Positions 14,170 through 30,194 of a stretch of DNA of 64,000 nt are shown here, piece after piece. Positions within the stretch are counted from its first letter, which is position 1; each line of letters opens with the position of its first letter. Both the position numbers and the translations under genes were made by a program. This stretch comes from Nonomuraea indica (lineage in GTDB: Bacteria; Actinomycetota; Actinomycetes; Streptosporangiales; Streptosporangiaceae), in assembly GCF_002850745.1 (NCBI RefSeq), contig NZ_KZ559481.1:78841-142840 (forward strand), given 5' to 3'. The notes beneath the pieces are model-generated. The model ran no database searches and was not told where the DNA came from. It was given only the letters and a program-made list of their open reading frames with translations.

Positions 14170-14184
14170 ACTGGTCGGACCAGT
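14170..14184. promoter_or_regulatory. FadR-type palindrome upstream of the SDR gene
   Basis: actggtcggaccagt is a perfect 15-bp palindrome 16 nt upstream of the SDR start. The same palindrome, differing only at the central base, occurs at 26822-26836 beside the GntR gene. TGGT-N3-ACCA is the known core of FadR-subfamily operators. Its position over the transcription start suggests repression. Confidence 0.8.
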
Positions 14185-14200
14185 CACTAAGGTGGGCGGC

Positions 14201-14965
14201 ATGACGGGATACGAGGGGTTGTTCCGCCTGGACGGGCGGCGGGCTGTGGTCATCGGGGCCGGGAGCGGCATCGGACGGGAGGCGGCGCTGGCGCTGGCCG
14301 CCCAGGGCGCCGAGGTGGTGTGCGCCGACCGCGACGTGGCCGCCGCCCGGGAGACGGCCGGCCGGTGCGGCGGGACGGCGCGGCTGCTCGACGTGCTCGA
14401 CGGCGACGCCGTGCGCCAGGCGGCCGCGGACGAGCCTGCCGACGTGCTGGTGTTCACGGCCGCGACGAACGTTCGCAAGCGGCTGCTCGACTACACCGCC
14501 GAGGAGTTCGGCCGCGTCGTGGACCTCAACCTGCGGGCCTCGTTCGACGTGGTGCGGGCCTTCGGGGCGGCGATGGTGGCGCGGGGCCGGGGATCGATCA
14601 TCGGGTTCGCGTCGATCCGGGCGGCGGTGACGGAGCCGGGCCAGGGCGTGTACTCGGCGACGAAGGCGGGGCTGGTGCAGTTGCTGCGGACCGCCGCCGC
14701 CGAGTTCGGCCCGCACGGGGTGCGGGTCAACGCCATCGCGCCGGGCGTGGTGGAGACGCCGCTGACCCGGCAGATCAAGGACGATCCCGCCTGGTACGGC
14801 GCGTACGCGGCCAAGAGCGCGCTGGGCCGGTGGGCGCGCGCCGAGGAGATGGCCGGGGCGGTGGTCTACCTGGCGAGCGACGCGGCGAGCTTCGTGACCG
14901 GCTCGGTGCTGTACGTGGACGGAGGCTGGACCGCGGTGGACGGCCGCTTCGACCCGCCCAACTGA
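14201..14965 (+). CDS. SDR-family oxidoreductase (gluconate 5-dehydrogenase-like)
   Basis: 254 aa classical short-chain dehydrogenase. The cofactor loop is GAGSGIG and the active site has Ser in GSIIGFASIRAA followed by YSATK (Tyr-x-x-x-Lys). An acidic residue after strand 2 (VVCADRD) predicts NAD(H). The usual NNAG motif is replaced (VFTAATNVRK), although the following NVRK is typical of gluconate 5-dehydrogenase/KduD-like members. ATG 14201 follows AGGTGG. It carries the FadR-type operator and is followed 94 nt on by an aldo/keto reductase, suggesting a joint redox step on a sugar acid, aldehyde or ketone. Confidence 0.88.
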   Translation: MTGYEGLFRLDGRRAVVIGAGSGIGREAALALAAQGAEVVCADRDVAAARETAGRCGGTARLLDVLDGDAVRQAAADEPADVLVFTAATNVRKRLLDYTAEEFGRVVDLNLRASFDVVRAFGAAMVARGRGSIIGFASIRAAVTEPGQGVYSATKAGLVQLLRTAAAEFGPHGVRVNAIAPGVVETPLTRQIKDDPAWYGAYAAKSALGRWARAEEMAGAVVYLASDAASFVTGSVLYVDGGWTAVDGRFDPPN

Positions 14966-15059
14966 TCGCCCCCGCGGGCGTCCCCCGAAGGGCGGTGAAA
15001 CGCCGTCCGGCGGTGATGTTAGCGTTCGCAGCGGGAGAGAGCGAGAGAAGGGGGATCAC

Positions 15060-16043
15060 GTGGAGCAGCGAGTTCTCGGCCGGACCGGCCGCCGGGTGGG
15101 CGTGGTGGGGCTCGGCGCGTGGCAGCTCGGCGCCGACTGGGGCGAGGTGCCCGAACAGGAGGCGCTGGCGACGCTGGCCGCCGCCGCGGACGCCGGGATG
15201 ACGTTCATCGACACGGCCGACGTCTACGGGGACGGGACCAGTGAGCGGCTCGTCGGCCGGTTCCTGAAGTCCCGCCCGGGGCACGGCATCACGGTGGCGA
15301 CCAAGATGGGCCGCCGGATGCCGCAGGAGCCGGGCAACTACACGCTCGCCAACTTCCGCGCCTGGACCGATCGCTCCCGGGCCAACCTGGGCGTCGACGT
15401 GCTGGACCTGGTCCAGCTGCACTGCCCGCCGACGGCCGTCTACTCCTCCGGCGAGGTGTTCGACGCGCTCGACACGCTGGTCGCCGAGCAGCGGATCGCG
15501 GCGTACGGCGTCAGCGTGGAGACGCGCGCGGAGGCGCTGACCGCGATCGCGCGGCCGGGCGTGGCGAGCGTGCAGATCATCCTCAACATGCTGCGGCTCG
15601 GCCCGCTGGCGGAGGTGCTGCCCGCGGCGCGCGAGGCGGGCGTGGGCGTCATCGCGCGGGTGCCGCTGGCCAGCGGCCTGCTGTCGGGCAGGTACGACGA
15701 GAACACGACGTTCGCGGCGAACGACCACCGGACCTTCAACCGGCACGGCGAGGCTTTCGACGTCGGCGAGACGTTCTCGGGGGTGGAGTTCTCGACGGGG
15801 CTGGCGGCGGTGCGACGGCTGGCGCCGCTCGTGCCGGACGGCGCGACCATGGCGCAGTTCGCGCTGCGCTGGATCATCGACCAGCCCGGGGTGAGCGTGG
15901 TGATCCCGGGCGCCCGCAACCCGGAGCAGGCCCGGTCCAACGCGGCCGCCGCGGATCTGGCGCCGCTGGCGGAGCGGCACCTGGAGGCCGTGCGCGAGGT
16001 CTACGAGGAACTCCTCGCACCGCAGGTGGCCGACCGCTGGTGA
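15060..16043 (+). CDS. Aldo/keto reductase
   Basis: 327 aa TIM-barrel NAD(P)H-dependent oxidoreductase. The AKR catalytic set is visible: Asp and Tyr in FIDTADVYGDG, Lys in TKMGRR, and His in LVQLHCPP. The C-terminal cofactor region is IPGARNPEQARSNAAA. GTG 15060 has AAGGGGG upstream. It lies downstream of the operator-bearing SDR gene in the same direction and is likely in the same transcript. In the wider regulon it could reduce or oxidise an aldehyde intermediate. Confidence 0.9.
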   Translation: MEQRVLGRTGRRVGVVGLGAWQLGADWGEVPEQEALATLAAAADAGMTFIDTADVYGDGTSERLVGRFLKSRPGHGITVATKMGRRMPQEPGNYTLANFRAWTDRSRANLGVDVLDLVQLHCPPTAVYSSGEVFDALDTLVAEQRIAAYGVSVETRAEALTAIARPGVASVQIILNMLRLGPLAEVLPAAREAGVGVIARVPLASGLLSGRYDENTTFAANDHRTFNRHGEAFDVGETFSGVEFSTGLAAVRRLAPLVPDGATMAQFALRWIIDQPGVSVVIPGARNPEQARSNAAAADLAPLAERHLEAVREVYEELLAPQVADRW

Positions 16044-16091
16044 CCTCCCCGGGCGACCGGGTCGCGGGTGACCGGGCCCGCGTGACGCGGG

Positions 16092-16709
16092 TCAGTCGCG
16101 GCGGCCCGGCCAGGCGGCCAGGGCCACCTCGGCGATCGTGGCGAGCTCCTCCGGCCCGGCGCCGTCACGGGCGCGCTGCGACATGCCCTGGATGACGGCC
16201 CCGAAGTAACCGGCCAGCGCGCGGGGATCGGCGCCGGCGGGCAGCTCGCCCCGCTCGCGCGCCTCGCGCAGCCGCGCCTCGAAGACGACGAGGTTGGCGT
16301 TGCGCAGGTCGCGAAGGTACTCCCCCACCTCGGCGTCCTGGACGGTGACGTTGGTGGCCGCGCAGATGGTCAGGCAGCCCGCCGGATGCGACGGGTCGGG
16401 GTAGATCGACGCCGCCTCGCGCAGGATCCGGGCGAAGGCGCCGTACGCCGTCGGCTCCTCGCGCAGGGCGTCGGCCATGAAGGTGCCGAGCGGCGAGCGC
16501 CCGTAGGTTTCCACCACTTCCCTGAACAGGGCCTTCTTGTCGCCGAACGCGGCGTAGAGGCTGCCGGGCCGGATGCCCATCGCCTCGGTCAGCTCGCCGA
16601 CCGAGGTCGCCTCGTAGCCGCGCTCCCAGAACAGCCGCGTCGCCTCGGCCAGCGCCGTGTCCCGGTCGAAGCCGCGCGGGCGGCCCCGCGTCCCCCCTGT
16701 CGTCGCCAT
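16092..16709 (-). CDS. TetR-family repressor
   Basis: 205 aa. The N-terminal helix-turn-helix (residues 16-60: ALAEATRLFWERGYEATSVG then LTEAMGIRPGSLYAAFGDK) is canonical. The C-terminal half resembles the TetR_C subgroup found beside SDR and quinone-type reductases. It is divergent from an SDR gene across an 80-nt region with two near-palindromic sites, so it probably represses both itself and that gene. The ligand is unknown, probably a reactive aldehyde or ketone substrate of the SDR. Confidence 0.9.
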   Translation of the reverse strand: MATTGGTRGRPRGFDRDTALAEATRLFWERGYEATSVGELTEAMGIRPGSLYAAFGDKKALFREVVETYGRSPLGTFMADALREEPTAYGAFARILREAASIYPDPSHPAGCLTICAATNVTVQDAEVGEYLRDLRNANLVVFEARLREARERGELPAGADPRALAGYFGAVIQGMSQRARDGAGPEELATIAEVALAAWPGRRD

Positions 16710-16721
16710 GCCCTCATTCTA

Positions 16722-16770
16722 GAGCGCTCACTCAAGAATCCGTGCTACTGTATTTCTTGAGTGACCGCTC
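16722..16770. promoter_or_regulatory. Paired TetR operators between tetR and SDR genes
   Basis: Arms 16722-16738 and 16754-16770 are inverted copies matching at 16 of 17 positions, 15 nt apart. Each arm with its flanks is itself a near palindrome of the form TTGAGTGA[C/G]CGCTC[A/T]A, so there are probably two dimer sites covering both promoters. Confidence 0.8.
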
Positions 16771-16789
16771 AACAAATAGGAGGCATGTC

Positions 16790-17560
16790 ATGAGCAAGCC
16801 GTTGGACGGCAAGATCGCACTGGTCACCGGTGGGAGCCGCGGGATCGGCCGGGCCATCGCCGAGCGGCTGGGCCGCGACGGAGCGGTCGTGGCCGTCGCG
16901 TACGCCCGCGAAGAGGTCGCCGCCAAGGAGGTCGTGGCGCGCATCGAAGGCGGCGGCGGCCGGGCGTTCCCGCTCCGCGCGGAGCTGGGCGGCCACGGTG
17001 ACGCGGTGGCGCTGTGGGACGCCTTCGACGCCGCGGTCGCCGCCTACGCGCCGCGGGGAGGCGTGGACATCATCGTCAACAACGCCGCCATCGCCACCAG
17101 TTCGGACCTGGACGGGCTCACGGAGGAGGAGTTCGACCAGGTGTTCGCGGTGAACGTCCGGGCGCCGTTCTTCATCGTCAAGGAGGCGCTGCGGCGGGGG
17201 CTGCGCGACGGCGGGCGCGTCGTGAACATCTCCAGCGGGGTCACCCGCATCGCGCTGCCCGACGTCATCGCCTACTCCGCCACCAAGGGGGCCCTCGATG
17301 TGTTCACGCTGACGCTGGCCAAGCAGCTCGGTCCGCGCGGCATCACGGTCAACTCGGTCGCGCCCGGCTACGTGGACACCGACGTGAACGCCGGGTGGCT
17401 GAGCGACCCGGAGGCGGCGGCCCAGGCCGCGGCCGCCTCGGTGTTCGGCCGGATCGGGCAGCCGGACGACATCGCGGGCGTCGTGGCGTTCCTCGCCTCC
17501 GACGACGCCCGCTGGGTGACGGGCCGGGTGATCGACGCGACGGGCGGCTCCCTGCTCTGA
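16790..17560 (+). CDS. SDR-family oxidoreductase (FabG-like)
   Basis: 256 aa classical short-chain dehydrogenase: cofactor loop GGSRGIG, NNAA, catalytic Ser in VVNISSGVT and YSATKGA. AYAREE after strand 2 points to NADP(H). ATG 16790 has an ideal AGGAGG 6 nt upstream. Control by the divergent TetR gene is likely. Probably reduces a xenobiotic or metabolic carbonyl compound. The substrate cannot be told from sequence. Confidence 0.9.
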   Translation: MSKPLDGKIALVTGGSRGIGRAIAERLGRDGAVVAVAYAREEVAAKEVVARIEGGGGRAFPLRAELGGHGDAVALWDAFDAAVAAYAPRGGVDIIVNNAAIATSSDLDGLTEEEFDQVFAVNVRAPFFIVKEALRRGLRDGGRVVNISSGVTRIALPDVIAYSATKGALDVFTLTLAKQLGPRGITVNSVAPGYVDTDVNAGWLSDPEAAAQAAAASVFGRIGQPDDIAGVVAFLASDDARWVTGRVIDATGGSLL

Positions 17561-17612
17561 AGCGAGGTCGCCCGGGAAGGCTCAGGGCCCGTTGTCGGTG
17601 GCGGGTGGGATC

Positions 17613-18203
17613 ATGCCGGGCATGCGAACTCGTGCGGATTTCCGCTGGCTCGGCGAAGACGACGCCCTGGACGACGTCTACTGCGTGTCGTTCGTCCGCG
17701 ACCTGTCCCCCCGGGAGGCGCTCCGGCGGTTCGGCGTGGACGAGAGCACGATGGAGGAGATGACCTTCGACGAGCTGAGCGAGCGGTCGGCGGCCAACGC
17801 CGACGGCGCGGCCGGTTGCGTCGGCGCCGTGCGGATCGGCGGCTGGACCATGGTCGTCGAGCCGGGCGGCTGGAAGCTCGCGATCGACTCCGACACGGGC
17901 GCCCGGGTCTCGGCCGGGACCGAGCTGGTGTCGGTCTGCCGCCACGACTACGCCGCCGACCGCTTCACCTGTCTGGCCGACGGCGAGGTCGTCACCTCCT
18001 TCGACCCGATCGCCCCCGGCGCGCGGGAGGGCGGCGACCCCGACCGCTTCCTCACGTGGATGCGTGAGACCGGCCTCGATCCCGGCGACGGCGACCCGCC
18101 GATCCCCGCCTGTTTCGCGCTGGCGAGCCGGATCACGGGCCTGCCGTTCACCCGCGACCTGCTGGAGCTGGGGTTCCTCGGCGCGGAGCCGCTCGAGCAG
18201 TGA
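17613..18203 (+). CDS. DUF6461 family protein
   Basis: About 196 aa. The opening DFRWLGEDDALDDVYCVSFVRDLSPREALRRFGV and the central GWTMVVEPGGWKLAI match the actinobacterial DUF6461 family, of unknown function. Soluble, acidic, without signal peptide. ATG 17613 has GGTGGGA too close upstream, while ATG 17622 gives normal spacing; the choice is open. The stop is directly adjacent to the stop of the convergent aldehyde dehydrogenase gene (0 nt). Confidence 0.78.
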   Translation: MPGMRTRADFRWLGEDDALDDVYCVSFVRDLSPREALRRFGVDESTMEEMTFDELSERSAANADGAAGCVGAVRIGGWTMVVEPGGWKLAIDSDTGARVSAGTELVSVCRHDYAADRFTCLADGEVVTSFDPIAPGAREGGDPDRFLTWMRETGLDPGDGDPPIPACFALASRITGLPFTRDLLELGFLGAEPLEQ

Positions 18204-19652
18204 TCACGGGCGGATGATGGCCATGCGGGTGACCGTCAGCTCCTCGATGGCGAAGCGGGGGCCCTCACGGCCGGCGCCGCTGTCCTTGACGCCTCCGTAG
18301 GGCATGTTGTCCGCGCGGAACCCCGGCACGTCGTTGACCACCACGCCGCCCGCCTCGATGCGGTCGATCGCGGCGAAGGCCGTGGCCAGCGAGCGGGTGA
18401 AGACGCTGGCGTGCAGCCCGTACCTGGAGGCGTTGACCGCGGCGAAGGCGGCGTCGAGGCCGGGCACCGGGCGGACGCACACCACCGGGCCGAAGATCTC
18501 CTCGTCCCAGGCGGCGGCGCCGTCGGGGACGCCGGCGAGGACGGTCGGGGTGATGGCGCGGCCGTCGAGGGCGCCGCCGGTGACCAGCGTGCCGCCCGAC
18601 TCGCGGACCCAGGCGAGGACGCGTTCGGTGGCGGCCGGGTCGATGAGCGGGGCGACCCGCGTCTCGGGCGAGCGGGGGTCGCCGACGACGACGTCCGCCA
18701 TCCGCTCGGCCAGCAGCGCGACGAACTCGTCGTGGACGGGCTCCTCGACCAGGACCCGCTGCACGGAGATGCACGCCTGGCCGGAGGCGTAGTAGCCGCC
18801 GCGCACGACGGCCGCGGCGGCGGCCTCGAGGTCGGCGTCGGCGGCGACGACGAGGGCGGCGTTGGAGCCGAGCTCCAGCAGCACCTTGGTGGGGGCGGCG
18901 GCGCGGGCGATGGCGTGACCGGCCGACGCGGAACCGGTGAACGACACGGCGCCGATCCGGCGGTCCTCCACGAGCGCTCGCCCCACCTCGACGTCCCCCG
19001 TGACGAGCTGCACGCCCGCCGGCGGGAGCGCGCCCTCCCCGTCCGCGGCGGCGCGCAGCAGGTGGACGAGCCAGAGGGTGGCCAGGGGCGTCGCGGGAGC
19101 GGGTTTGACGATGACCGGGCAGCCCGCCGCCAGCGCGGGCGCGATCTTGTGGGCGGCCAGCAGCAGCGGATAGTTGAAGCCGGTGATCCCGACGACCACG
19201 CCGATGGGCCGCCGCGTCCAGAACCCGAACAGCCCCTCCCCCGCCGGCAGCAGGTCGAGCGGCACGGTCTCCCCGTGCAGCCGGGCCACCTCCTCGGCGG
19301 CGGTGGCCAGCGTGACGAGCGTGCGCGCCACCTCGACGCGGCAGTCCACCAGGGGCTTGCCGGTCTCCAGCACGAGCAGCCGTTCGAAGGCCTCGCGCCG
19401 GGCCGCCAGCGCGTCGTGCGCGCCCATGAGGGCGGCGCGGCGGGCGTGCGAGGGCAGCGCCGCCACGGCGGGCGCGACGGCGAGGGCCTCGTCCACGGCC
19501 CGGCGGGCCAGTTCGGCGGTGCCCACCGGGGCCGCGCCCACCACGGAGCCGTCGTACGGGAAGACGACCTCGCGGGTGGCGCCCGTCTCGACCCAGCCCG
19601 GCCCGACGGGCAACCCCTCCGGCCAGCCGTCCTCTATATCGTGAAAAATCAC
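18204..19652 (-). CDS. NAD(P)-dependent aldehyde dehydrogenase
   Basis: 482 aa with a complete active site: Asn160 (GFNYP), Lys183 (VKPAP), Glu260 (LELGSN) and nucleophile Cys294 (GQACISVQR). It resembles the semialdehyde/glycolaldehyde/benzaldehyde-type branch. It is last in the eight-gene operon. Its GTG start overlaps the stop of the P1 peptidase gene by 4 nt (GTGA), implying translational coupling. It should oxidise an aldehyde released from the imported substrate to the carboxylic acid. Confidence 0.92.
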   Translation of the reverse strand: MIFHDIEDGWPEGLPVGPGWVETGATREVVFPYDGSVVGAAPVGTAELARRAVDEALAVAPAVAALPSHARRAALMGAHDALAARREAFERLLVLETGKPLVDCRVEVARTLVTLATAAEEVARLHGETVPLDLLPAGEGLFGFWTRRPIGVVVGITGFNYPLLLAAHKIAPALAAGCPVIVKPAPATPLATLWLVHLLRAAADGEGALPPAGVQLVTGDVEVGRALVEDRRIGAVSFTGSASAGHAIARAAAPTKVLLELGSNAALVVAADADLEAAAAAVVRGGYYASGQACISVQRVLVEEPVHDEFVALLAERMADVVVGDPRSPETRVAPLIDPAATERVLAWVRESGGTLVTGGALDGRAITPTVLAGVPDGAAAWDEEIFGPVVCVRPVPGLDAAFAAVNASRYGLHASVFTRSLATAFAAIDRIEAGGVVVNDVPGFRADNMPYGGVKDSGAGREGPRFAIEELTVTRMAIIRP

Positions 19653-20683
19653 GCCACTCCCCCTACAGCGCTGGGAAACACGTCCAGGTACGCGGGCGCG
19701 CCGTCCCGTCCGGTGGCTGCCAGCACGGCGTGCGCCACGGCGCGGCTGAACACGTCGGCCCCGGCGGCGAGCACGTCCTGCAGGTCGTCGGCGCCGGGGG
19801 CCGGCCCGCGGCAGCCGGCCAGGCCGAAGATCGTGTCACCGTCGACCATGGTGTGGGCCGGTCTGATCGCGCGGGCCAGGCCGTCGTGGGCGACGCCCGC
19901 CAGCTTGCCGCACTGCGCCTTGGTGAGCGTGAGGTCCGTGGCGACGACGCCGATCGTGGTGTTGAACGACGTCACGGCGCCGGGCCGCCAGGCGGCGGCC
20001 TCCTGCGCGAGCGGCTCGCGCAGGTGTCCGAACTCGCCCGGCAGGCCGTACCTGGCGCCGGACAGGAACGCGCCGCCGGGGTCGAGCACGGACCCGGCGG
20101 CGTTGACCACGGCGAGGGCGGCCACGGTGGCGCCGGACGGCAGGACGGCGCTGGCCGTGCCGACGCCGCCGGCGAGTCCGCCCGCCACGGCGCCGGCGCC
20201 CGCGCCGATCGATCCGTTGCGGGCCTCGGAAGCCGACGCCGCGTCGTAGGCGGCCGCGCCCAGCGCGCCGTCCGGCACGGCGCGGAACCGGCCGCCGCGC
20301 CCCAGGTCGTAGATGACGGCGGCGGGCACGATGGGCACCACGCCACCAGCGACGGGGAAGCCCGTCCCCGCGTCCGCCAGCCGGTCCATGACGCCGCACG
20401 CCGCGCTCAGGCCGAAGGCGCTGCCGCCGGTGAGGACGACGGCGTGCACGCGTTCGACGAGATTGCGGGGATCGAGCAGCTCGGTCTCGCGCGTGCCCGG
20501 CGCGGCCCCGCGCACGTCCACCCCGGCCACCATGCCGCCGGGGGGCGCGAGCACGACGGTCGTGCCGGTGCGGTGGCCGTCGCCGATCCGCTCGGCGTGA
20601 CCGACCCGCAGCCCGGCCACGTCCACCAGCGCGTTCGCGGCGCCCGCCACCGGCCCCGCCACCCGGCCCGGCCCGGTGCTCAC
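19649..20683 (-). CDS. P1-family (DmpA/NylC-like) self-processing peptidase
   Basis: 344 aa Ntn-type hydrolase of MEROPS family S58/P1, which includes DmpA aminopeptidase, beta-peptidases and the nylon-oligomer hydrolase NylC. Enzymes of this group cleave themselves before a Ser or Thr that becomes the nucleophile. Here the expected site is Asn241/Thr242 in SFNTTIGVVATD. Other family motifs are TGGSAFGLSAACGVMD and RPAHTMVDGDT. The GTG start at 20683 overlaps the upstream M20 stop by 4 nt. Its unusual substrate range (beta-peptides, D-residues, omega-amides) makes it a clue to the compound imported by the operon. Confidence 0.88.
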   Translation of the reverse strand: MSTGPGRVAGPVAGAANALVDVAGLRVGHAERIGDGHRTGTTVVLAPPGGMVAGVDVRGAAPGTRETELLDPRNLVERVHAVVLTGGSAFGLSAACGVMDRLADAGTGFPVAGGVVPIVPAAVIYDLGRGGRFRAVPDGALGAAAYDAASASEARNGSIGAGAGAVAGGLAGGVGTASAVLPSGATVAALAVVNAAGSVLDPGGAFLSGARYGLPGEFGHLREPLAQEAAAWRPGAVTSFNTTIGVVATDLTLTKAQCGKLAGVAHDGLARAIRPAHTMVDGDTIFGLAGCRGPAPGADDLQDVLAAGADVFSRAVAHAVLAATGRDGAPAYLDVFPSAVGGVA

Positions 20684-21857
20684 GGCAGGTCCCGGGTGAG
20701 GAAGCGTCGGGCGGCCTCGGCGAAGACGCGGGTGCACCGGACGATCTCGGCCACCTCGACGTACTCGTCGGCCTGGTGCGCGATCCACTTGCCGCCCGGC
20801 CCGTAGACGACGGACGGGATGCCGCCCCAGTGGGTGAGCACGGTCCCGTCGGTCGAGCCGGGCACCCCGCCGTAGACGGGCTCCGCGCCCGTGACGGCCC
20901 GATGGGCGGCGGCGAGCGCGACCACGACCGGGTCGTCCACGGGCACGTCCACCGGTGGCCGGTCCACCAGGATCGAAACCTCGGCGGCGATCCCGTCGCG
21001 GGCGGTGAGCGCGCCGACCCGGCCGGCGATCTCCTGGTGGTCCACGCCGGGGATCGTCCGCACGTCCACGAACACCGAGGCGACGGCGGGGATGACGTTC
21101 ACCTGCTCCTCGGTGCCGGCCCGGACGACGGTCGGCGTCACGTACACCTCGCCCAGGTGCTCGTGCGCCGGGTGGCGTTCCTGCAGCTCCTTCTCCAGCG
21201 TCTCCAGGGCGGCCAGCAGCGACGCGGCAGCCGGGATGGGGTTGCGGCCGTGGCGGGGCATCGCGCCGTGCGCCATCTTGCCGGTGAGGTCGATCCGCAG
21301 TCGCAGCGCGCCCTTGGCGACCGCGCAGATCTCGCCCGCCTCGGGCTCGGCGACGATGGCGCCGTCGACGTCCGCCGCGAGTCCCTCGGCGACGAAGTGG
21401 TGGGCGCCGATCATCAGGCCCTCCTCGTCGGCCAGCGCGCACACCTTGATCCGGCCGGGGAACGGCCCGGCGAGCTGCAGCGCCCGGGTGGCGTAGAGGG
21501 TGGCGGCCAGGCCGGACTTCATGTCGGCGCTGCCGCGGCCCCACAGCCGTCCGTCGCGGATCTCGCCGCCGAACGGGTCCACCGTCCACTCCGACAGGTC
21601 GCCCTCGGTGACCACGTCGGTGTGCCCCTCGAACATGAGCGTCGGCCCGTCGCCCCCACCGCCCTCGACGACGGCCACCACGTTCGGCCGGCCGGGCGCC
21701 GCCTCGTGGACTGCGGGCTCCCAGCCCCATTCGCGCATCTTCGCCACGACCAGGTCGGCGGCCGGCCGTTCGCTGCGGCCCCGCGCCGGGTCGTTGGTGC
21801 TGGGGACGCGCACCAGCGCCTGCGTGAACTCCACGACCCCCTGGGCGTCGACCTCGA

Positions 21858-21861
<4 letters not shown>
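20680..21861 (-). CDS. M20-family metallo-amidohydrolase (ArgE/DapE-like)
   Basis: 393 aa di-zinc hydrolase. Metal ligands and catalytic residues are in place: His80-x-Asp82 (EGHTDVV), Asp113 (SADMKSG), the catalytic Glu pair 146-147 (ADEEG), and a late His in WIAHQADEY. The dimerisation lid lies between. Members deacylate N-acyl amino acids or split dipeptides. GTG 21861 has TTGGAGGG upstream and overlaps the DppF-type stop by 4 nt. Its place directly after the importer genes suggests it performs the first intracellular hydrolysis. Confidence 0.92.
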
Positions 21862-22670
<809 letters not shown>

Positions 22671-23539
22671 GGCCGTCTCCTGTCAGCGCGGGTTCGCTCT
22701 CGCAGGCGGGGGTGGCGTGCGGGCAGCGGTTGCGGAACACGCACCCTCCGGGGAAGTGGCCGGCGGGCGGGACGCTGCCGGCGATGGTGGCCAGCCGGGT
22801 GCCGCGCGGGGTGAGCCGGGAGGCGGCCAGCAGGCCCTCGGTGTAGCGGTGGCGAGGGCGGGCGAACACCTCGCGGAGGGGGCCGGACTCGACGACGCGC
22901 CCGCCGTACATGACGAGGACGCGGTCGCAGACCGAGGCGACCACGGCCAGGTCGTGGGTGATGAACAGCAGCGCGGGCGCGACCTCGGCGATGAGTTCCA
23001 GCATCTGTTTCTGGACGGTGACGTCGAGCGCGGTGGTGGGCTCGTCGCAGATGAGCAGGTCGGGCTCGTTGGCCAGGGCGATGGCCAGCATGACGCGCTG
23101 GCGCTGCCCGCCGGAGAGCTGGTGGGGGTAGGCGCGGGCGACCTGGGCGGGCTGCGGCAGGCGGACCCGGCCGAGCAGCTCGACGGCACGCTCGCGGGCA
23201 CGGGCGGCGGGCACGCCGTGCAGGGTCATGACCTCGGTGACCTGTGCGCCGACCCGCATGAGCGGGTTGAGCGCGGTCATCGGCTCCTGGAACACCATGG
23301 AGACCCGGCGGCCGCGCAGGTCCTTGAGCCGCCGTTCGGGGACGCCGACGAGGTCGCGCCCCTCCAGCCGGGCGGTGCCGGTCGCGGTGACGCCCTCGGG
23401 GAGCAGGCCCATGAGCGACAGCGCGGTCAGCGACTTGCCGGAACCGGACTCGCCGATGAGGCCGACCCGCTCGCCGGGGGCGATGCCGAACGACACCTCG
23501 CGCACCAGCTCGACGGGGCCCGCGTGGACGCTCAGGCGG

Positions 23540-24373
23540 TCAACCTTCAGCACGCACCCTCCTCAGCTTGGGGTCGAGGTGGTCGCGCAGGCCGTCACCG
23601 AGCAGGTTGAAGCCGAGCACGGCCAGGGCGATCGCCAGGCCCGGCCACAGGGCCAGGCGCGGGGTGGAGAACAGCAGTTCCTGCGACTCCTGCAGCATGC
23701 GGCCCCACGACGGGGTGGGCGGCCGGGTGCCGAAGCCGAGGAACGACAGCGCCGCCTCGGCCAGGATCGCGATGGCGAACGACACCGACGCCTGCACGAT
23801 GAGCACCGAGCCGATGTTCGGCAGCACGTGCCGCACCGCGATGGCGGTGCGGCGGCGGCCGGCGGCCCGGGCGGCGAGGATGTAGTCGGTCACCATGACC
23901 TGCATGGTCGCGGCGCGGGCGACGCGGGCGAACGCCGGCACGGTGGCGACCCCGATCGCGATCATCGCGGTGAGCGTGCCCGCCCCGTAGACGGCGCCGA
24001 GCATGACGGCCAGCAGCAGCGCCGGGAAGGCGAACACCAGGTCGTTGACCCGCATGACCAGCTCCGCCTGCCAGCCGCGAGGCGTCATCCCGGCGAGCAC
24101 GCCGAGCGGGGTGCCGAGCAGGGCGGCGATGCCGACGGCGACGACGCCGACGTAGAGGGTGGTGCGGGCGCCGACCATGAGCTGGCTCAGCGTGTCGCGG
24201 CCGAACTTGTCGGCGCCGAGGAGGTGGCCGCCGCCGGGTTCGCGCAGCTTGTTCGCGGCGTCGACGTAGGTGGGGTCGTGGGGGGTCCACACGAACGAGA
24301 CGAGCGCGGCGAGCACGACCAGGCCCACCAGCGCGCCGCCGGTGACGAGGGCGGTGTTGACCCGGCCCCTCAC
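23540..24373 (-). CDS. dppC: Peptide-type ABC importer permease (DppC)
   Basis: 277 aa inner-membrane permease with about six hydrophobic segments, including an N-terminal one (ALVTGGALVGLVVLAALVS) followed by the DppC-type loop HLLGADKFGRDTLSQLM. The ATPase-coupling EAA region is DYILAARAAGRRRTAIAVRH. GTG 24373 overlaps the DppB stop by 4 nt. The open frame continues far upstream but is out of phase with DppB and is not translated from there. Confidence 0.92.
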   Translation of the reverse strand: MRGRVNTALVTGGALVGLVVLAALVSFVWTPHDPTYVDAANKLREPGGGHLLGADKFGRDTLSQLMVGARTTLYVGVVAVGIAALLGTPLGVLAGMTPRGWQAELVMRVNDLVFAFPALLLAVMLGAVYGAGTLTAMIAIGVATVPAFARVARAATMQVMVTDYILAARAAGRRRTAIAVRHVLPNIGSVLIVQASVSFAIAILAEAALSFLGFGTRPPTPSWGRMLQESQELLFSTPRLALWPGLAIALAVLGFNLLGDGLRDHLDPKLRRVRAEG

Positions 24374-25317
24374 CGCGTGCCCCGCAGCCGCGGGTCGAGC
24401 GCCGCGTAGCAGACGTCCACCACGAAGTTGATCAGCAGGACGGCCACGACGAGCACCATCACCACCCCCTGGACGAGCAGCAGGTCGCGGCCGGCGACGC
24501 CGTTGAGCAGCAGGTCGCCGAGGCCGGGGATGACGAACACCCGCTCCACCACGACCGCGCCGACGAGCAGCGTGGCGAGCTGCAGGCCGAGCACGGTGAC
24601 CACGGGGACGGCGGCGTTGCGCAGCCCGTGCCGCCACAGCGCGCCCATCCGGCCGCGGCCCTTGGCGCGGGCGGTGCGCAGGTAGTCCTCGCGCATCACG
24701 TCGAGCACGGCGCTGCGCACGTACCGGGTGAGCACGGCGGCCTGCACGAGGCCGAGTGACAGCCAGGGCAGCAGCAGGCCGCGCAGCCACCCGGCGGGGT
24801 CCTCGGCGAGCGGCACGTACCCGCCGGAGGGCAGCGCCTGCGCCCGCACGGCGAAGACGAACACCAGCAGGATGCCCGCGAGGAACGCCGGGACGGCGAG
24901 GCCGACCTGGCTGGCGGCGCTGATGGCCGCGCCGAGCGGGTCGCGGTGGTGGACGGCGGCGAACGTGCCCACCGGCACCGCGACGAGCAGCGCGATGAGC
25001 ATGCCACCGGCCACGAGCACCGCCGTCACGCCGAGCCGGTCGCCGATCTGCTCGCCGACGGGTGAGCTGGTGACGTAGGAGGTGCCGAAGTCGCCCTGGA
25101 GCAGCCCGCCGAACCAGTCGAGGAACTGGACGACGGGCGGCCGGTCGGTGCCGAACTCGGCGCGCAGCCGCGCCACCGCCTCAGGTGTGGCGTTGACGCC
25201 GAGCGCGATCTCGGCCGGGTCGCCGGGCAGCACCGCCATGAACGCGAAGACGACGGCCCCGGCGACGGCGGTGCTGGCCAGGAGCACCGCCAGGCGCTTG
25301 AGCAGGTAGAGGATCAC
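24370..25317 (-). CDS. dppB: Peptide-type ABC importer permease (DppB)
   Basis: 315 aa. It begins with the typical LYLLKRLAVLLASTAVAGAV first segment, then the large external loop with LPGDPAEIALG and DFGTSYVTSSPV, and the EAA coupling loop DYLRTARAKGRGRMGALWRHGLR cut by family-typical Gly. GTG 25317 overlaps the stop of the binding-protein gene by 4 nt. Forms the translocation pore with DppC. Confidence 0.92.
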   Translation of the reverse strand: MILYLLKRLAVLLASTAVAGAVVFAFMAVLPGDPAEIALGVNATPEAVARLRAEFGTDRPPVVQFLDWFGGLLQGDFGTSYVTSSPVGEQIGDRLGVTAVLVAGGMLIALLVAVPVGTFAAVHHRDPLGAAISAASQVGLAVPAFLAGILLVFVFAVRAQALPSGGYVPLAEDPAGWLRGLLLPWLSLGLVQAAVLTRYVRSAVLDVMREDYLRTARAKGRGRMGALWRHGLRNAAVPVVTVLGLQLATLLVGAVVVERVFVIPGLGDLLLNGVAGRDLLLVQGVVMVLVVAVLLINFVVDVCYAALDPRLRGTR

Positions 25318-26798
25318 TGCTTGGCGAGTCCCGTGAAGTCGAAGGACTCGGAGATCGCGTTCTTCGGCAGGCCGGTGACGCCCTTCTCGGCCACGATCAG
25401 GTTGGGGAAGAGGAACAGCCAGTCGGCCGCGGCGTCGTCGGACAGCAGTTTGGCGGCCTTCTTGAGGTCCTCGGTCTGCTGCTGTTCGGTGCCCTCGTCG
25501 GCGGAGGCGAGCAGCTTGCCGAACTCGGGGTTGTCGTAGCGGAAGTAGTACGACTTGTCGGCGAATATGCCCATGTCGTGGGGCTCGACGTGGTTGATGA
25601 TGGACAGGTCGTAGTCGGCCTGCTTGAAGACCACGTCCAGCCACCGGGCGGGGAACTCCAGCGGCTCGATGTCGGCCGTGATGCCCACCTGGGCGAGCTG
25701 CGACTTGACCACCTGGGCGGAGGCCACGGCGTACGGCAGGTTGGGGATGCGCATCTTGACGGTGTACGTCCTGCCGCCGAGCAGTTCCTTGGCCTTGGCG
25801 ACGTCGTAGGGGTAGTCGCCGGTGCGGTCCTCGTACCAGGGGTCGGTGGGCGGCACCATCGAGCCGATCGGCCGGCCCCGCCCGGCCCAGGCGGTGTCGA
25901 GCAGCGCCTTGTGGTCGATGGCGTGCCGGACAGCCTGGCGCACCTTCTTGTCGTCGAACGGGGGGCGGCCGTTGTTCATCGACAGCACCACCTCGCCGTT
26001 GGTGGTGCCCTCGACCGTCTGGAAGCGGGCCGGGTCGGCGAACTGCTGGAGCGACTCGGGGGCCTGGACCGCGGAGATGACGTCGATGCCGCCGGTGAGC
26101 AGCGCGTTGTTCATGGCGGTGGCGTCCTTGAAGTACTTCAGCGTGACGGCCGGGAGCGCGGGCCTGGCACCCCAGTACTTCGGGTTGGCGTCGAGCCGGA
26201 TGGAGTCGCCGCGCTTCCACGCGGCCAGCTGGTAGGGACCGGTGCCGACGGGCTTGTTGGCCAGGTCGGCGACGCCGGTGCGGCTGAACATCGCGCCGAG
26301 GCGGGTGGCCAGCGCGTAGAGGAAGTCGTTGCTGGGCCGCTTCAGCGTGACGACGGCGGTCGTGTCGTCCTTCTTCTCGACCTTGTCGATGACGTCGAGC
26401 TTCGACTTGATCTTCAGCTTCCAGTCGGTCCTGACCCGGTCGAGGGAGAAGACGACGTCGTCGGCGGTGAACGGGGCGCCGCTGGTGAAGGTGACGTTCG
26501 GGCGGAGGGTGAAGGTGTAGGTCCGGCGGTCCGGCGAGACCTCCCACTTCTCGGCCAGCAACGGCTGGATCGTGCCGTCCTGGCCGAGCTTGACCAGTCC
26601 CTCGTAGACGTTGACCAGCAACGCCTGCGGGATGGCCGCGCCCTCGGTCGAGGTGAAGTCGAGATTGGCCGGCTCCGCCACGAACCCGACCGTCAGCGAC
26701 CCGCCCTTGGCCGCGCCGCCCCCGCCGGAGCCGCCGCCGCAGGCGGCCGCGCTCATCAGGAGACCGCCCAGGGCGATCCAGATGCCGATGCGCCTCAT
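25314..26798 (-). CDS. Peptide-type ABC solute-binding lipoprotein (SBP family 5)
   Basis: 494 aa. A lipoprotein signal peptide ends in the lipobox SAAAC (Cys20), followed by a Gly/Ser linker. The mature part has the family 5 (DppA/OppA) order: AEPANLDFTSTEG, EGLVKLGQDG, PNVTFTSGAPFTADDVVFSL and PVGTGPYQLAAW. This is the capture protein of the importer and the first gene of the eight-gene operon, 24 nt downstream of the FadR-type palindrome. Ribosome site GGAGG precedes ATG 26798. Family 5 also binds nickel, opines and other non-peptides, so the ligand is open. Confidence 0.93.
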   Translation of the reverse strand: MRRIGIWIALGGLLMSAAACGGGSGGGGAAKGGSLTVGFVAEPANLDFTSTEGAAIPQALLVNVYEGLVKLGQDGTIQPLLAEKWEVSPDRRTYTFTLRPNVTFTSGAPFTADDVVFSLDRVRTDWKLKIKSKLDVIDKVEKKDDTTAVVTLKRPSNDFLYALATRLGAMFSRTGVADLANKPVGTGPYQLAAWKRGDSIRLDANPKYWGARPALPAVTLKYFKDATAMNNALLTGGIDVISAVQAPESLQQFADPARFQTVEGTTNGEVVLSMNNGRPPFDDKKVRQAVRHAIDHKALLDTAWAGRGRPIGSMVPPTDPWYEDRTGDYPYDVAKAKELLGGRTYTVKMRIPNLPYAVASAQVVKSQLAQVGITADIEPLEFPARWLDVVFKQADYDLSIINHVEPHDMGIFADKSYYFRYDNPEFGKLLASADEGTEQQQTEDLKKAAKLLSDDAAADWLFLFPNLIVAEKGVTGLPKNAISESFDFTGLAKQ

Positions 26799-26821
26799 GT
26801 CCCAAGCCTCCTGGCTAGTGC

Positions 26822-26836
26822 ACTGGTCTGACCAGT
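26822..26836. promoter_or_regulatory. FadR-type palindrome between the importer operon and its GntR gene
   Basis: actggtctgaccagt, a perfect 15-bp palindrome apart from the unpaired central base. It lies 24 nt before the binding-protein gene (leftward) and 50 nt before the GntR gene (rightward), so one site can control both. The only other copy I found is at 14170-14184; both are preceded by gtgc or gtgt. Confidence 0.85.
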
Positions 26837-26885
26837 AGGCTATGCACATTGCCAGTCCACGACGGCTCAGGTCAAGGGGGCTTTG

Positions 26886-27638
26886 ATGGGTGGTCCACGC
26901 TTCGAGCCGGTGCGGGCCGTACGCGCCTACGAACGGATCGTGGAGCAGATCGAGGAGGCCGTCGAGAGCGGGGCGCTCGCCCCCGGGCAGCGGCTGCCCA
27001 GCGAGCGCGACCTCATGGGGCAGTTCTCGGTGAGCCGGTCCACGGTCCGTGAGGCGCTGCGGGTGCTGCAGGCGCGCGGCCTGGTCCGGTCCCGGCCGGG
27101 CGACCCCAACGGCGCCGAGGTGCTGCCGTTCACCCCCGCCGCGCTGCACAAGTCGATGACGACGCTCGCCCGGGTGCAGGGGCTGTCGCTGGCGGAGCTG
27201 GTGCAGTTCCGCATGGTCCTCGACTCCTCGGCCAACCTGCTGGCCGCGCGGCTGCGCACCGACGAGCAGCTCGCGGAGATGGACGCGGCCATCGACCGGA
27301 TGCGCGAGGCGGTCGAGCAGGACTACGACGCCTTCAGCGCGGCCGACGTGGCCTTCCACGACGCGGTGGCGCGGGCCAGCCGCAACAAGCTCATCCAGAT
27401 CTGCACCGAGGTGGTCCGCTCGATCGTGCTCGGCCTGGTCTCGGGCCGGATCGCCGAGGCGGACGACCGGGTGGCGCTGATGCGGCGGAGCATCCGCCAC
27501 CACGAGGAGGTGCTGGCCGCCGTCCGCGCCGGCGACGGCCCGCTCGCGGCCCGGCTGTCGCGCCGCACCATGTACGACTACTACGTGGGGTACGTGCCGG
27601 CGGAGGAGCGCGCGGCGCTGCGCGCGCTGCTGGAGTAG
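26886..27638 (+). CDS. GntR-family regulator, FadR subfamily
   Basis: 250 aa. A winged helix-turn-helix fills residues 10-75 (YERIVEQIEEAVESGALAPG, LPSERDLMGQFSVSRSTVRE, ALRVLQARGLV), and an all-helical FCD effector domain follows. The FCD metal-site residues Asp/His are visible (ADVAFHDAVARAS, HHEEVL). Divergent from the importer operon with an operator between them, it is the likely repressor of that operon and of the SDR/AKR pair. The effector is presumably the imported compound or a breakdown product. ATG 26886 has a GGGGG ribosome site. Confidence 0.93.
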   Translation: MGGPRFEPVRAVRAYERIVEQIEEAVESGALAPGQRLPSERDLMGQFSVSRSTVREALRVLQARGLVRSRPGDPNGAEVLPFTPAALHKSMTTLARVQGLSLAELVQFRMVLDSSANLLAARLRTDEQLAEMDAAIDRMREAVEQDYDAFSAADVAFHDAVARASRNKLIQICTEVVRSIVLGLVSGRIAEADDRVALMRRSIRHHEEVLAAVRAGDGPLAARLSRRTMYDYYVGYVPAEERAALRALLE

Positions 27639-29005: not shown

Positions 29006-30031
29006 TCAGGCCAGGTCGCCGGCCGCGCCTCCCCCGCGCCCGCCCAGCGTGCTCTCCCTGGTCATGAGCCGGTACGTGGCGTGCACCTCGCGGGGCGGGC
29101 GGTCGGTCCGGCCCTCGATGCGCTGCTTGAGCAGGTCGACCGCGATCCCGGCGAGCTGCGCCTTGTCGGGGGCGACCGTGGTCAGGGTGGGCGTGGAGAA
29201 GCGGCCGTCCTCGATGTCGTCGAACCCGGCCACCGCGACGTCCTCCGGTATCCGCAGCCCGGCGGCGAGGATCGTCCGGATCGCCCCGAGCGCCAGCAGG
29301 TCGTTGAAGCAGAAGACGGCGTCGGGCCGGGCCTCCAGCAGGGCGGCCATCGCGGCGGCGCCCTCCGCCCGGCGGTAGCGGTCCACCTTCGCCACCGTCT
29401 CGGGCAGCGCGTGCGCGGCCAGGGACTCGCGGTAGCCGGCCAGGCGGGGCGGGGCCGTCCCGCTGATCGAGTTGTCCTGCGCCCCGAGGGCGGCGATCCG
29501 TCTGCGGCCGAGCCCGATGAGGTGCTCGGTGACGTCGCGGGCCGCGCGCACGTTGTCGACCGCGACATGGTCGGCCGGGCCGCCGTGGATGCGCTCGCCC
29601 AGCAGCACCAGAGCCGTGTCGTCGGTACGGGCGGCCAGCTCGTCGGCGCCGATCGCGATGGGGCTGAGGATGAGCCCGTCCACGCGGTGCCTGCGCACCC
29701 CGTCGAGCACCTGCCGCTCCCGGTCCAGGCTGCCCCCGGTCTGCTCGATGATCACCAGCCAGCCGACCTCGGCGGCGGCGTCGATGATGAACCGCGACAG
29801 CTCGGCGAAGTAGGGGGCGTCCAGCTCGGGCAGCGCCAGGGCGATCACGCCGGTGCGGCCCTGCCGCAGGTTGCGCGCCGACAGGTTGGGGCGGTAGTCG
29901 AGCTGGGAGAGCGCGTGCTCGACCTTGGCCCGGGTGGCCGGGGACACGTGGGCGTACCCGTTCACCACGTTGGAGACCGTCTTCACCGACACGCCGGCCA
30001 GGCGCGCGACGTCGCGCAGGCTCGCTCCCAT
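29006..30031 (-). CDS. LacI-family repressor of the arabinoside locus
   Basis: 341 aa. The N-terminal LacI headpiece is clear (LRDVARLAGVSVKTVSNVVN, hinge LSARNLRQGRTG), followed by a periplasmic-binding-protein-like sugar sensor. ATG 30031 with GGGAGG 9 nt upstream is preferred to GTG 30037. Divergent from the arabinofuranosidase gene across a 163-nt region that contains a 23-bp palindrome. It should repress the enzyme/transporter operon in the absence of an arabinose-containing inducer. Confidence 0.92.
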   Translation of the reverse strand: MGASLRDVARLAGVSVKTVSNVVNGYAHVSPATRAKVEHALSQLDYRPNLSARNLRQGRTGVIALALPELDAPYFAELSRFIIDAAAEVGWLVIIEQTGGSLDRERQVLDGVRRHRVDGLILSPIAIGADELAARTDDTALVLLGERIHGGPADHVAVDNVRAARDVTEHLIGLGRRRIAALGAQDNSISGTAPPRLAGYRESLAAHALPETVAKVDRYRRAEGAAAMAALLEARPDAVFCFNDLLALGAIRTILAAGLRIPEDVAVAGFDDIEDGRFSTPTLTTVAPDKAQLAGIAVDLLKQRIEGRTDRPPREVHATYRLMTRESTLGGRGGGAAGDLA

Positions 30032-30127
30032 CCGCACTCACCTCCCAAGGTCGCACGGCTCGCCTGCCGCACACGATTCGACGCCGTCGATCGTAACGCC
30101 CCGGTATCGGCGGTCCGCACAGCCATT

Positions 30128-30150
30128 TACAACGTTGAAGCAACGTTGTA
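30128..30150. promoter_or_regulatory. 23-bp palindromic LacI operator of the arabinoside operon
   Basis: Arms TACAACGTTG (30128-30137) and CAACGTTGTA (30141-30150) are perfectly complementary around AAG. Each arm holds its own 8-bp palindrome CAACGTTG with a central CG, the hallmark of LacI-family sites. So this is either two adjacent operators or one long one. It lies 45 nt before the enzyme gene and 97 nt before the regulator gene. Confidence 0.85.
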
Positions 30151-30194
30151 TCAATACCTCCACGAAACGTCGCGTTCACAGTGAGGTTGTTGTC

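What the first reader, a model, noticed from the sequence alone, without database searches (positions are those of the whole stretch)
14170..27638. A shared 15-bp FadR-type palindrome joins two distant gene sets into one catabolic regulon
ACTGGTC-N-GACCAGT occurs at 14170-14184 (before an SDR/aldo-keto reductase pair) and at 26822-26836 (between a GntR/FadR gene and an eight-gene operon). The core fits known FadR-subfamily sites, and I noticed no third copy. The regulon would contain a peptide-type ABC importer, an M20 amidohydrolase, a P1 (DmpA/NylC-like) peptidase, an aldehyde dehydrogenase, an SDR and an AKR. That set is consistent with import of an amide- or peptide-like compound, hydrolysis to an amino alcohol or aldehyde, and oxidation. 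I know of no described pathway with exactly this composition.
Basis: partly seen in the sequence, partly recalled or inferred. Interest (0 to 1): 0.78.

Follow-up and report, generated by a model that had tools for sequence, protein, structure and literature searches.

The report
Regulon predicted to break down vitamin B5
Two matching DNA switches and one predicted repressor tie together a set of soil-bacterium genes that most likely import and digest vitamin B5 (pantothenate) and its relatives, which would give gene candidates for an old degradation pathway whose key enzyme is still unidentified.

Summary
Confirmed: ACTGGTC-N-GACCAGT occurs exactly twice in the 8.29-Mb genome, at the stated places. 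In all 22 sampled same-genus genomes with this GntR, one copy lies between GntR and the importer operon and one before the SDR (43 of 44 exact). The two same-genus genomes without the GntR have none. It is the textbook FadR-type operator.

The regulon is supported: importer, M20, P1, ALDH and SDR. The AKR, beside the SDR in only 5 of 22, is probably a passenger.

Outside the genus, the ALDH-SDR pair travels with one amide hydrolase: of 18 clusters 8 have M20, 7 an amidase, none both. Eight carry an isopropylmalate/tartrate-type dehydrogenase. In single lineages a beta-alanine-type aminotransferase with MmsA, a monocarboxylate-type symporter or panC lies alongside. These steps match classical pantothenate degradation (recalled), whose first enzyme, pantothenase, was called unidentified in 2023. 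No activity was tested. Confidence about 0.7.

The parts
14170..14184 (.). operator B, ACTGGTCGGACCAGT, before the SDR
   Evidence: exact in 21 of 22 genus genomes with the GntR, 1 mismatch in the other
14201..14965 (+). SDR; proposed D-pantoate 4-dehydrogenase
   Evidence: Pfam SDR; beside operator B in 22 of 22 genus genomes with the GntR; next to the ALDH in 18 of 18 ALDH clusters outside the genus; substrate inferred
15060..16043 (+). aldo/keto reductase downstream of the SDR; probably not a conserved member
   Evidence: Pfam AKR; found beside the SDR in 5 of 22 genus genomes
18204..19652 (-). aldehyde dehydrogenase; proposed aldopantoate (4-oxopantoate) dehydrogenase
   Evidence: seen in 20 of 22 genus genomes; substrate inferred
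19649..20683 (-). P1/S58 N-terminal-nucleophile hydrolase; proposed hydrolase of pantetheine-type amides
   Evidence: best solved relative ThnT; aligned through ThnT's Asn-Thr site; not in the ThnT clade; substrate inferred
20680..21861 (-). M20 ArgE/DapE-type hydrolase; proposed pantothenase
   Evidence: replaced by an amidase in 7 of 18 clusters outside the genus, none with both; substrate inferred
21858..22670 (-). ABC importer ATPase 2
22639..23553 (-). ABC importer ATPase 1
23540..24361 (-). ABC importer permease 2
24370..25317 (-). ABC importer permease 1
25314..26798 (-). solute-binding lipoprotein of the Opp/Nik class
26822..26836 (.). operator A, ACTGGTCTGACCAGT, between GntR and the importer operon
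   Evidence: exact in 22 of 22 genus genomes with the GntR
26886..27638 (+). GntR/FadR-subfamily (FCD) regulator, predicted repressor of both units
   Evidence: GntR+FCD domains; co-occurs with the site; binding and repression inferred

Best explanation
This is a FadR-type repressor and its two operators controlling a catabolic set for pantothenate and its amides (pantetheine-like compounds). Proposed working: the Opp-type importer brings the amide in. The P1 hydrolase cuts pantetheine-type amides to pantothenate and an amine. The M20 enzyme cuts pantothenate to pantoate and beta-alanine. The SDR oxidises pantoate to 4-oxopantoate and the ALDH oxidises that to 3,3-dimethylmalate. A decarboxylating malate/isopropylmalate-type dehydrogenase then gives 2-ketoisovalerate; it is in the cluster in several genera, while in this genome the only relative found is a LeuB-like gene elsewhere. 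A pathway compound would release the GntR protein. Shown by sequence: the two sites, their conservation with the GntR, the co-inheritance of the genes, the M20/amidase exchange and the neighbouring genes. Inferred: DNA binding, repression, effector, every substrate.
For: Regulon: 2 exact sites in 8.29 Mb; site in 24 of 24 genomes with the GntR against 4 of 226 without, and in 0 of the 2 same-genus genomes without it. All 14 arm columns are invariant in 43 copies and only the centre base varies. The exact 15-mer is also in 11 of the 18 clusters outside the genus, beside GntR relatives of 34-68% identity. Pathway: of 18 ALDH+SDR clusters outside the genus (gathered by GntR, P1 and ALDH searches), 15 hold exactly one of M20 (8) or amidase (7) and none holds both. 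An Iso_dh gene is in 8 of the 18; best model tartrate DH, below its cut-off, in the two tested first, LeuB, above its cut-off, in Arthrobacter. This step was written down as a thing to look for, before it was seen. Beta-alanine-side genes: MmsA plus a PRK06062 aminotransferase, both above cut-off, next to the amidase in G311; both on a Thermus thermophilus plasmid with SDR, M20 and importer genes; MmsA beside M20 in T. brockianus; an aminotransferase relative 59% identical near the Serinicoccus SDR. panC, above its curated cut-off, lies just past ALDH-SDR-GntR on an Arthrobacter plasmid that also carries an E2-type acyltransferase, an acyl-CoA dehydrogenase and methylcitrate-cycle genes. In two f3-family (probably Streptomyces) genomes a symporter of the MctP/PanF group follows M20-ALDH-SDR, with no importer relative in the fetched 20 kb. 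P1: best solved relative ThnT, 316 bits against 168 for the next, a nylon hydrolase; [quoted passage not shown]
Against: No activity, binding or growth datum. ThnT does not fall in the clade of cluster P1s but with stand-alone Streptomycetaceae P1s, and 18 of 20 fetched P1 loci with relatives of the window P1 show no such cluster, so P1's substrate is inferred. Seven of 18 clusters show no P1 hit and G783 only a P1 paralog. This genome has no cluster Iso_dh, only a LeuB-like gene (50%), and no relative of the G311 aminotransferase at E<=1e-100, a strict limit at which an empty answer proves little. G207 lacks P1 and ALDH beside the operon. Three of 18 clusters show neither M20 nor amidase (one on a 5.5-kb contig). 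Six further related loci (Serinicoccus, Kineosphaera, Meiothermus, two Thermus, Acidothermales) show no ortholog of the ALDH, and the first two no M20 or amidase either. The exact site was not found in the fetched stretches of 7 of the 18 clusters (one of them has it with 1 mismatch). The symporter scores better for MctP (167 bits) than PanF (76 bits), both far below cut-off. The Arthrobacter plasmid also carries menB and pntAB, so panC's place may be partly accidental.
Confidence: 0.7

Rival explanations
1. Same regulon and same chemistry, but for another amide whose acid half is a 2,4-dihydroxy (or similar) acid, or another N-acyl-beta-amino acid, not pantothenate.
For: Enzyme classes fix reaction types, not substrates. 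An M20 relative (45%) sits with dihydropyrimidine dehydrogenase and dihydropyrimidinase genes in Deinococcus, so N-acyl-beta-alanines other than pantothenate are conceivable; peptide-type importer.
Against: panC and the MctP/PanF-type symporter as neighbours; I know of no other common natural amide of a 2,4-dihydroxy acid (recalled).
Confidence: 0.17
2. A peptide or amino-acid amide utilisation operon, as the first reader and family names suggest, with unrelated oxidoreductases.
For: P1 (DmpA/NylC-like), M20 and Opp-type importer names.
Against: Does not explain the fixed ALDH-SDR pair, the M20/amidase exchange, the Iso_dh gene, or the clusters in which no peptide importer and no P1 were found.
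Confidence: 0.07
3. A salvage system that frees beta-alanine from pantothenate for CoA synthesis rather than a route to carbon and energy.
For: E. coli cleaves supplied pantothenate and reuses only the beta-alanine part (PMC10393543, abstract and passages).
Against: The conserved SDR and ALDH, and Iso_dh where present, would oxidise the pantoate half; importer plus repressor looks like substrate-induced catabolism (inference).
Confidence: 0.05
4. The operators belong to a different FadR-type regulator, so that the neighbouring GntR is not the binder.
For: The site is close to the consensus of both FadR and LldR of E. coli (PMC9329746 and PMC10272880, passages).
Against: The site follows this GntR across genera and is absent in the two same-genus genomes without it.
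Confidence: 0.05

Closest known systems
Bacterial pantothenate degradation of Pseudomonas fluorescens (pantothenase, pantoate and aldopantoate dehydrogenases, dimethylmalate dehydrogenase; EC 3.5.1.22, 1.1.1.106, 1.2.1.33, 1.1.1.84; pathway and numbers recalled)
   Same: Each predicted enzyme class corresponds to one step in the same order.
   Different: The known pathway is biochemical; I found no gene assignment in the open-access papers searched. Here the genes sit in one regulon with an importer and an added P1 hydrolase.
ThnT, pantetheine hydrolase of thienamycin synthesis (P1/S58 family)
   Same: Closest solved relative of the P1 protein; aligned through the Asn-Thr site.
   Different: ThnT falls in a neighbouring clade with Streptomycetaceae stand-alone P1s and acts in antibiotic synthesis, not in a catabolic operon.
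E. coli FadR and LldR regulons
   Same: Same GntR+FCD regulator type and practically the same operator.
   Different: Target genes are not fatty acid or lactate genes; effector unknown.
DmpA/BapA/NylC peptidases and amidases
   Same: Same S58 family.
   Different: NylC-type chains score 71-77 bits against 316 for ThnT; a nylon-66 hydrolase scores 168.

Membership tests
FadR (FCD) subfamily of GntR regulators | N-terminal GntR winged helix and C-terminal FCD domain | tested here: met
   PF00392 and PF07729 above cut-offs
FadR (FCD) subfamily of GntR regulators | operator of the type TGGTC-N-GACCA beside its own gene | tested here: met
   consensus from PMC9329746
FadR (FCD) subfamily of GntR regulators | actual DNA binding and effector response | not testable with these tools
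   needs purified protein
Pantothenate degradation pathway | amidohydrolase for pantothenate (pantothenase) | tested here: inconclusive
   one M20 or amidase in 15 of 18 clusters outside the genus, none with both; activity not tested
Pantothenate degradation pathway | alcohol and aldehyde dehydrogenases for the pantoate half | tested here: inconclusive
   SDR beside ALDH in 18 of 18 ALDH clusters outside the genus; substrates not tested
Pantothenate degradation pathway | decarboxylating dimethylmalate dehydrogenase | tested here: inconclusive
   Iso_dh gene in 8 of 18 clusters outside the genus; in the window's genome only a LeuB-like gene found
Pantothenate degradation pathway | growth on pantothenate as carbon source | not testable with these tools
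   needs culture
ThnT-type pantetheine hydrolase | S58 domain with Asn-Thr autocleavage site | tested here: met
   (Thr invariant in 15 of 15 aligned rows; the Asn is His in one row, not the window's)
ThnT-type pantetheine hydrolase | falls in one clade with ThnT apart from other P1 proteins | tested here: not met
   tree of 119 rows, quick method
ThnT-type pantetheine hydrolase | hydrolysis of a pantetheine amide | not testable with these tools
   needs enzyme assay

The most novel reading that the evidence does not exclude
This is the first gene-level assignment of the whole pantothenate/pantetheine catabolic pathway: two unrelated pantothenases (M20 type and amidase-signature type) that replace each other, a pantoate dehydrogenase, an aldopantoate dehydrogenase and a dimethylmalate dehydrogenase, under one FadR-type repressor, with a P1-family bacterial pantetheinase and in some species an exported P1 paralog as the front end.
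Probability: 0.6. Interest if true: 0.83.

Novelty: new variant of a known kind. Interest (0 to 1): 0.74.

Why it matters
Vitamin B5 breakdown by bacteria was described decades ago from enzyme work (1966 and 1979 references cited in PMC10393543), and that 2023 paper still states that the pantothenase protein is unidentified (passages). If true, this gives concrete gene candidates for every step and a marker cluster to find vitamin B5 degraders. It also says what some P1-family 'peptidases' of actinobacteria may do. Vitamin consumers of this kind would matter for vitamin exchange in microbial communities.

Tried and rejected
Site as a chance repeat: rejected. AKR as a member: not conserved, though two of the 17 genomes without it have contigs that end within 0.9 kb of the SDR, so they are not fully tested. 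P1 as proof of pantetheine chemistry: rejected as proof after the tree, kept as a lead. Symporter as PanF itself: not met. Other TGGTCNGACCA cores in the genome (10 in all, both operators included): stretches round seven were fetched and not annotated; the LeuB locus of the same call was (L206). The 1-mismatch site on contig 29 falls inside a predicted gene among others that, from their first residues only, look like MBL-fold, alcohol dehydrogenase and Rieske-type proteins; no family search was made. Variovorax SDR hit: none of the other core cluster genes found in the stretch. G184 acyl-CoA dehydrogenase beside its GntR: noted, not used. Literature for a gene assignment: (and 30 for ThnT) showed none in their listings; the library is open-access only, several listings were capped, and only the papers named were opened, in passages. 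Structure prediction and fold search were not used because they would not decide substrates.
Full report
Observation. The 15-bp palindrome ACTGGTC-N-GACCAGT is at 14170-14184 and 26822-26836 and nowhere else exactly in the 8,287,624-base genome; one further copy has one mismatch. The shorter core TGGTCNGACCA occurs 10 times in the genome, the two operators included. Copy A lies between a GntR+FCD regulator and an operon of eight genes on the minus strand: solute-binding protein, two permeases, two ATPases, M20, P1/S58 and ALDH. Copy B ends 16 bases before the ATG of an SDR, which is followed by an AKR. The genus is inferred to be Nonomuraea, because the P1 protein is 82% identical to N. gerenzanensis and the layout with both sites recurs in N. 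solani, there without the AKR in the fetched stretch.

Is it a regulon? In 250 genomes of the family, the GntR protein was found at E<=1e-50 in 24, and all 24 hold at least one exact site. Of the other 226, 4 do, one of which (G184) has a more distant GntR beside it; the reversed control pattern occurs 53 times in those 226 (hand count). Of 24 same-genus genomes (own included) 22 have the GntR; the two without it have no site. In those 22 genomes site A is exact in 22, site B exact in 21, and in G207 site B has one mismatch. Over the 43 exact copies all 14 arm positions are invariant and the centre base varies; mean column conservation is 0.97 in the site against 0.77-0.79 in the 30 bases either side of site A and 0.58-0.66 for site B, though the bases touching site A are conserved too. 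The sites were picked as exact matches, so invariance is partly by choice; the real test is that an exact match was there in 43 of 44 places. Outside the genus the exact 15-mer is in 11 of 18 clusters, beside GntR relatives of 34-68% identity, some matched over part of their length. It matches the E. coli FadR consensus aaCTGGTCnGACC(T/A)Gtt (PMC9329746, one passage) and the LldR box (PMC10272880, passages), so the site names the regulator type, not the substrate.

Who belongs to it? The SDR stands beside site B in 22 of 22 genus genomes with the GntR, and in G023 and G055 it is the last gene of the operon itself. The AKR is present beside the SDR in 5 of 22 and is probably a passenger. M20 was found in 22 of 22; P1 in 20 (G207 lacks it there, the G179 contigs end); ALDH in 20 (G207 lacks it there, the G243 contigs end). 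In G069 and G188 a third exact site lies before a P1 paralog (49% identity) whose gene model begins with a signal-like stretch, judged by eye; paralogs of that kind also lie next to the GntR in G645, G673 and G783.

What does it do? The P1 protein's best solved relative is ThnT (316 bits; next, a nylon hydrolase, 168), aligned through the Asn-Thr site. ThnT degrades the pantetheinyl group in thienamycin synthesis (PMC6097109, one passage). This suggested pantothenate chemistry, and I wrote down that a dimethylmalate-type dehydrogenase and beta-alanine genes should be looked for. The lead itself is weak: P1 relatives are common (183 of 396 phylum genomes at E<=1e-40). Of the 20 P1 loci fetched from that list, only two (L186, L188) are cluster-like; 12 show P1 alone and 6 show P1 with one other hit of 29-40% identity. 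In a 119-row tree ThnT sits with Streptomycetaceae P1s, not with the cluster P1s.

The prediction was then met from several sides. (i) Iso_dh: a PF00180 gene starts the operon right after the site in G055, Humibacillus (G645), G961, G728 and G783, heads the cluster in L109 (G648), stands divergently at the site in G793 (43%) and beside ALDH-SDR in Arthrobacter (48%): 8 of 18 clusters. Best models are tartrate dehydrogenase, below its cut-off (two proteins), and LeuB in Arthrobacter, above its cut-off. (ii) Hydrolase exchange: of 18 clusters outside the genus with ALDH and SDR, 8 have M20, 7 have an amidase-signature enzyme instead, none has both, 3 have neither (one of these on a 5.5-kb contig). 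The 18 were gathered by GntR, P1 and ALDH searches; all 13 non-genus genomes that the ALDH search found have the SDR next to the ALDH. Two unrelated hydrolases filling one slot point to one amide-cleaving step. (iii) Beta-alanine side: in G311 the amidase is next to a PRK06062 aminotransferase and MmsA, both above cut-off (best solved relative of the aminotransferase is a taurine aminotransferase); on a Thermus thermophilus plasmid MmsA, aminotransferase, SDR, M20 and importer genes are adjacent; T. brockianus has M20-MmsA divergent from the SDR; Serinicoccus has the aminotransferase near its SDR. (iv) Pantoate side: on Arthrobacter plasmid pDCT5, Iso_dh, ALDH, SDR and a GntR are followed by panC (275 bits, cut-off 213), with a dihydrolipoamide acetyltransferase-family gene, acyl-CoA dehydrogenase and methylcitrate-cycle genes nearby, as expected if ketoisovalerate is the product (inference). 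(v) Transport: in two f3-family genomes (probably Streptomyces, by the named tree neighbour) the cluster is GntR-site-M20-ALDH-SDR-DUF3311-SSS symporter, with no importer relative or P1 found in the fetched 20 kb; the symporter's best models are MctP and PanF, both below cut-off. A monocarboxylate-type carrier fits pantothenate better than a peptide.

An amide hydrolase, an alcohol dehydrogenase, an aldehyde dehydrogenase and a decarboxylating malate-type dehydrogenase, with beta-alanine as by-product, are the steps of classical pantothenate degradation (recalled: EC 3.5.1.22, 1.1.1.106, 1.2.1.33, 1.1.1.84). The pantothenase protein was called unidentified in 2023 (PMC10393543, passages). Searches for a gene assignment showed none in their listings; a 2025 review on CoA metabolism in gut bacteria does not use the word pantothenase (PMC12570885, passages).

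Against. Nothing was assayed. The window's genome lacks the cluster Iso_dh and would have to use its LeuB-like enzyme or stop earlier; its beta-alanine route was not found at a strict threshold. Seven of 18 clusters show no P1 hit and one more only a paralog; six related loci lack the ALDH; G207 lacks P1 and ALDH at the operon. The exact site is missing from the fetched stretches of 7 of 18 clusters: G945 has one mismatch, and G311, G880, G852, G648, G669 and Arthrobacter show none, some of these stretches being short. The ALDH marker is rare: 16 of 394 class genomes and 3 of 396 phylum genomes, own included. I give 0.93 to the regulon (both sites served by this GntR), 0.9 to the SDR and the operon sharing one pathway, 0.7 to a pantothenate-type substrate, 0.5 to P1 acting on pantetheine, 0.2 to the AKR having a role (all judgement).

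Noticed in passing
L069:7938 and L083:8238 (G069, G188): A third exact operator stands before a P1 paralog with a signal-like start (by eye) in two same-genus genomes, beside another peptide-type ABC gene set; similar paralogs lie next to the GntR in G645, G673 and G783. It may be an exported front-end hydrolase of the regulon.
   Followed up: partly
L087 and L218 (G184): A distant version: GntR (34%) and an acyl-CoA dehydrogenase face an importer-amidase operon across an exact site, and a one-mismatch site precedes ALDH-SDR; no M20 and no P1 found there.
   Followed up: partly
L107 (Serinicoccus): The importer operon is followed by pntAB, P1 and a formyl-transferase-domain gene, with SDR, an AMP-binding enzyme and a class III aminotransferase next door; pntAB also follow the Arthrobacter cluster.
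   Followed up: no
L246 (Deinococcus aetherius plasmid): An M20 relative (45%) sits beside dihydropyrimidine dehydrogenase and dihydropyrimidinase genes, where an N-carbamoyl-beta-alanine hydrolase would be expected.
   Followed up: no
window 29006-31703: A LacI regulator lies divergently to an alpha-L-arabinofuranosidase C-terminal domain protein: an ordinary-looking sugar locus next to the regulon.
   Followed up: no
window 16092-17560: A TetR regulator and a second SDR lie divergently between the two halves of the regulon; among the fetched genus loci both were found only in the same four genomes that have the AKR (G212, G217, G227, G240).
   Followed up: partly
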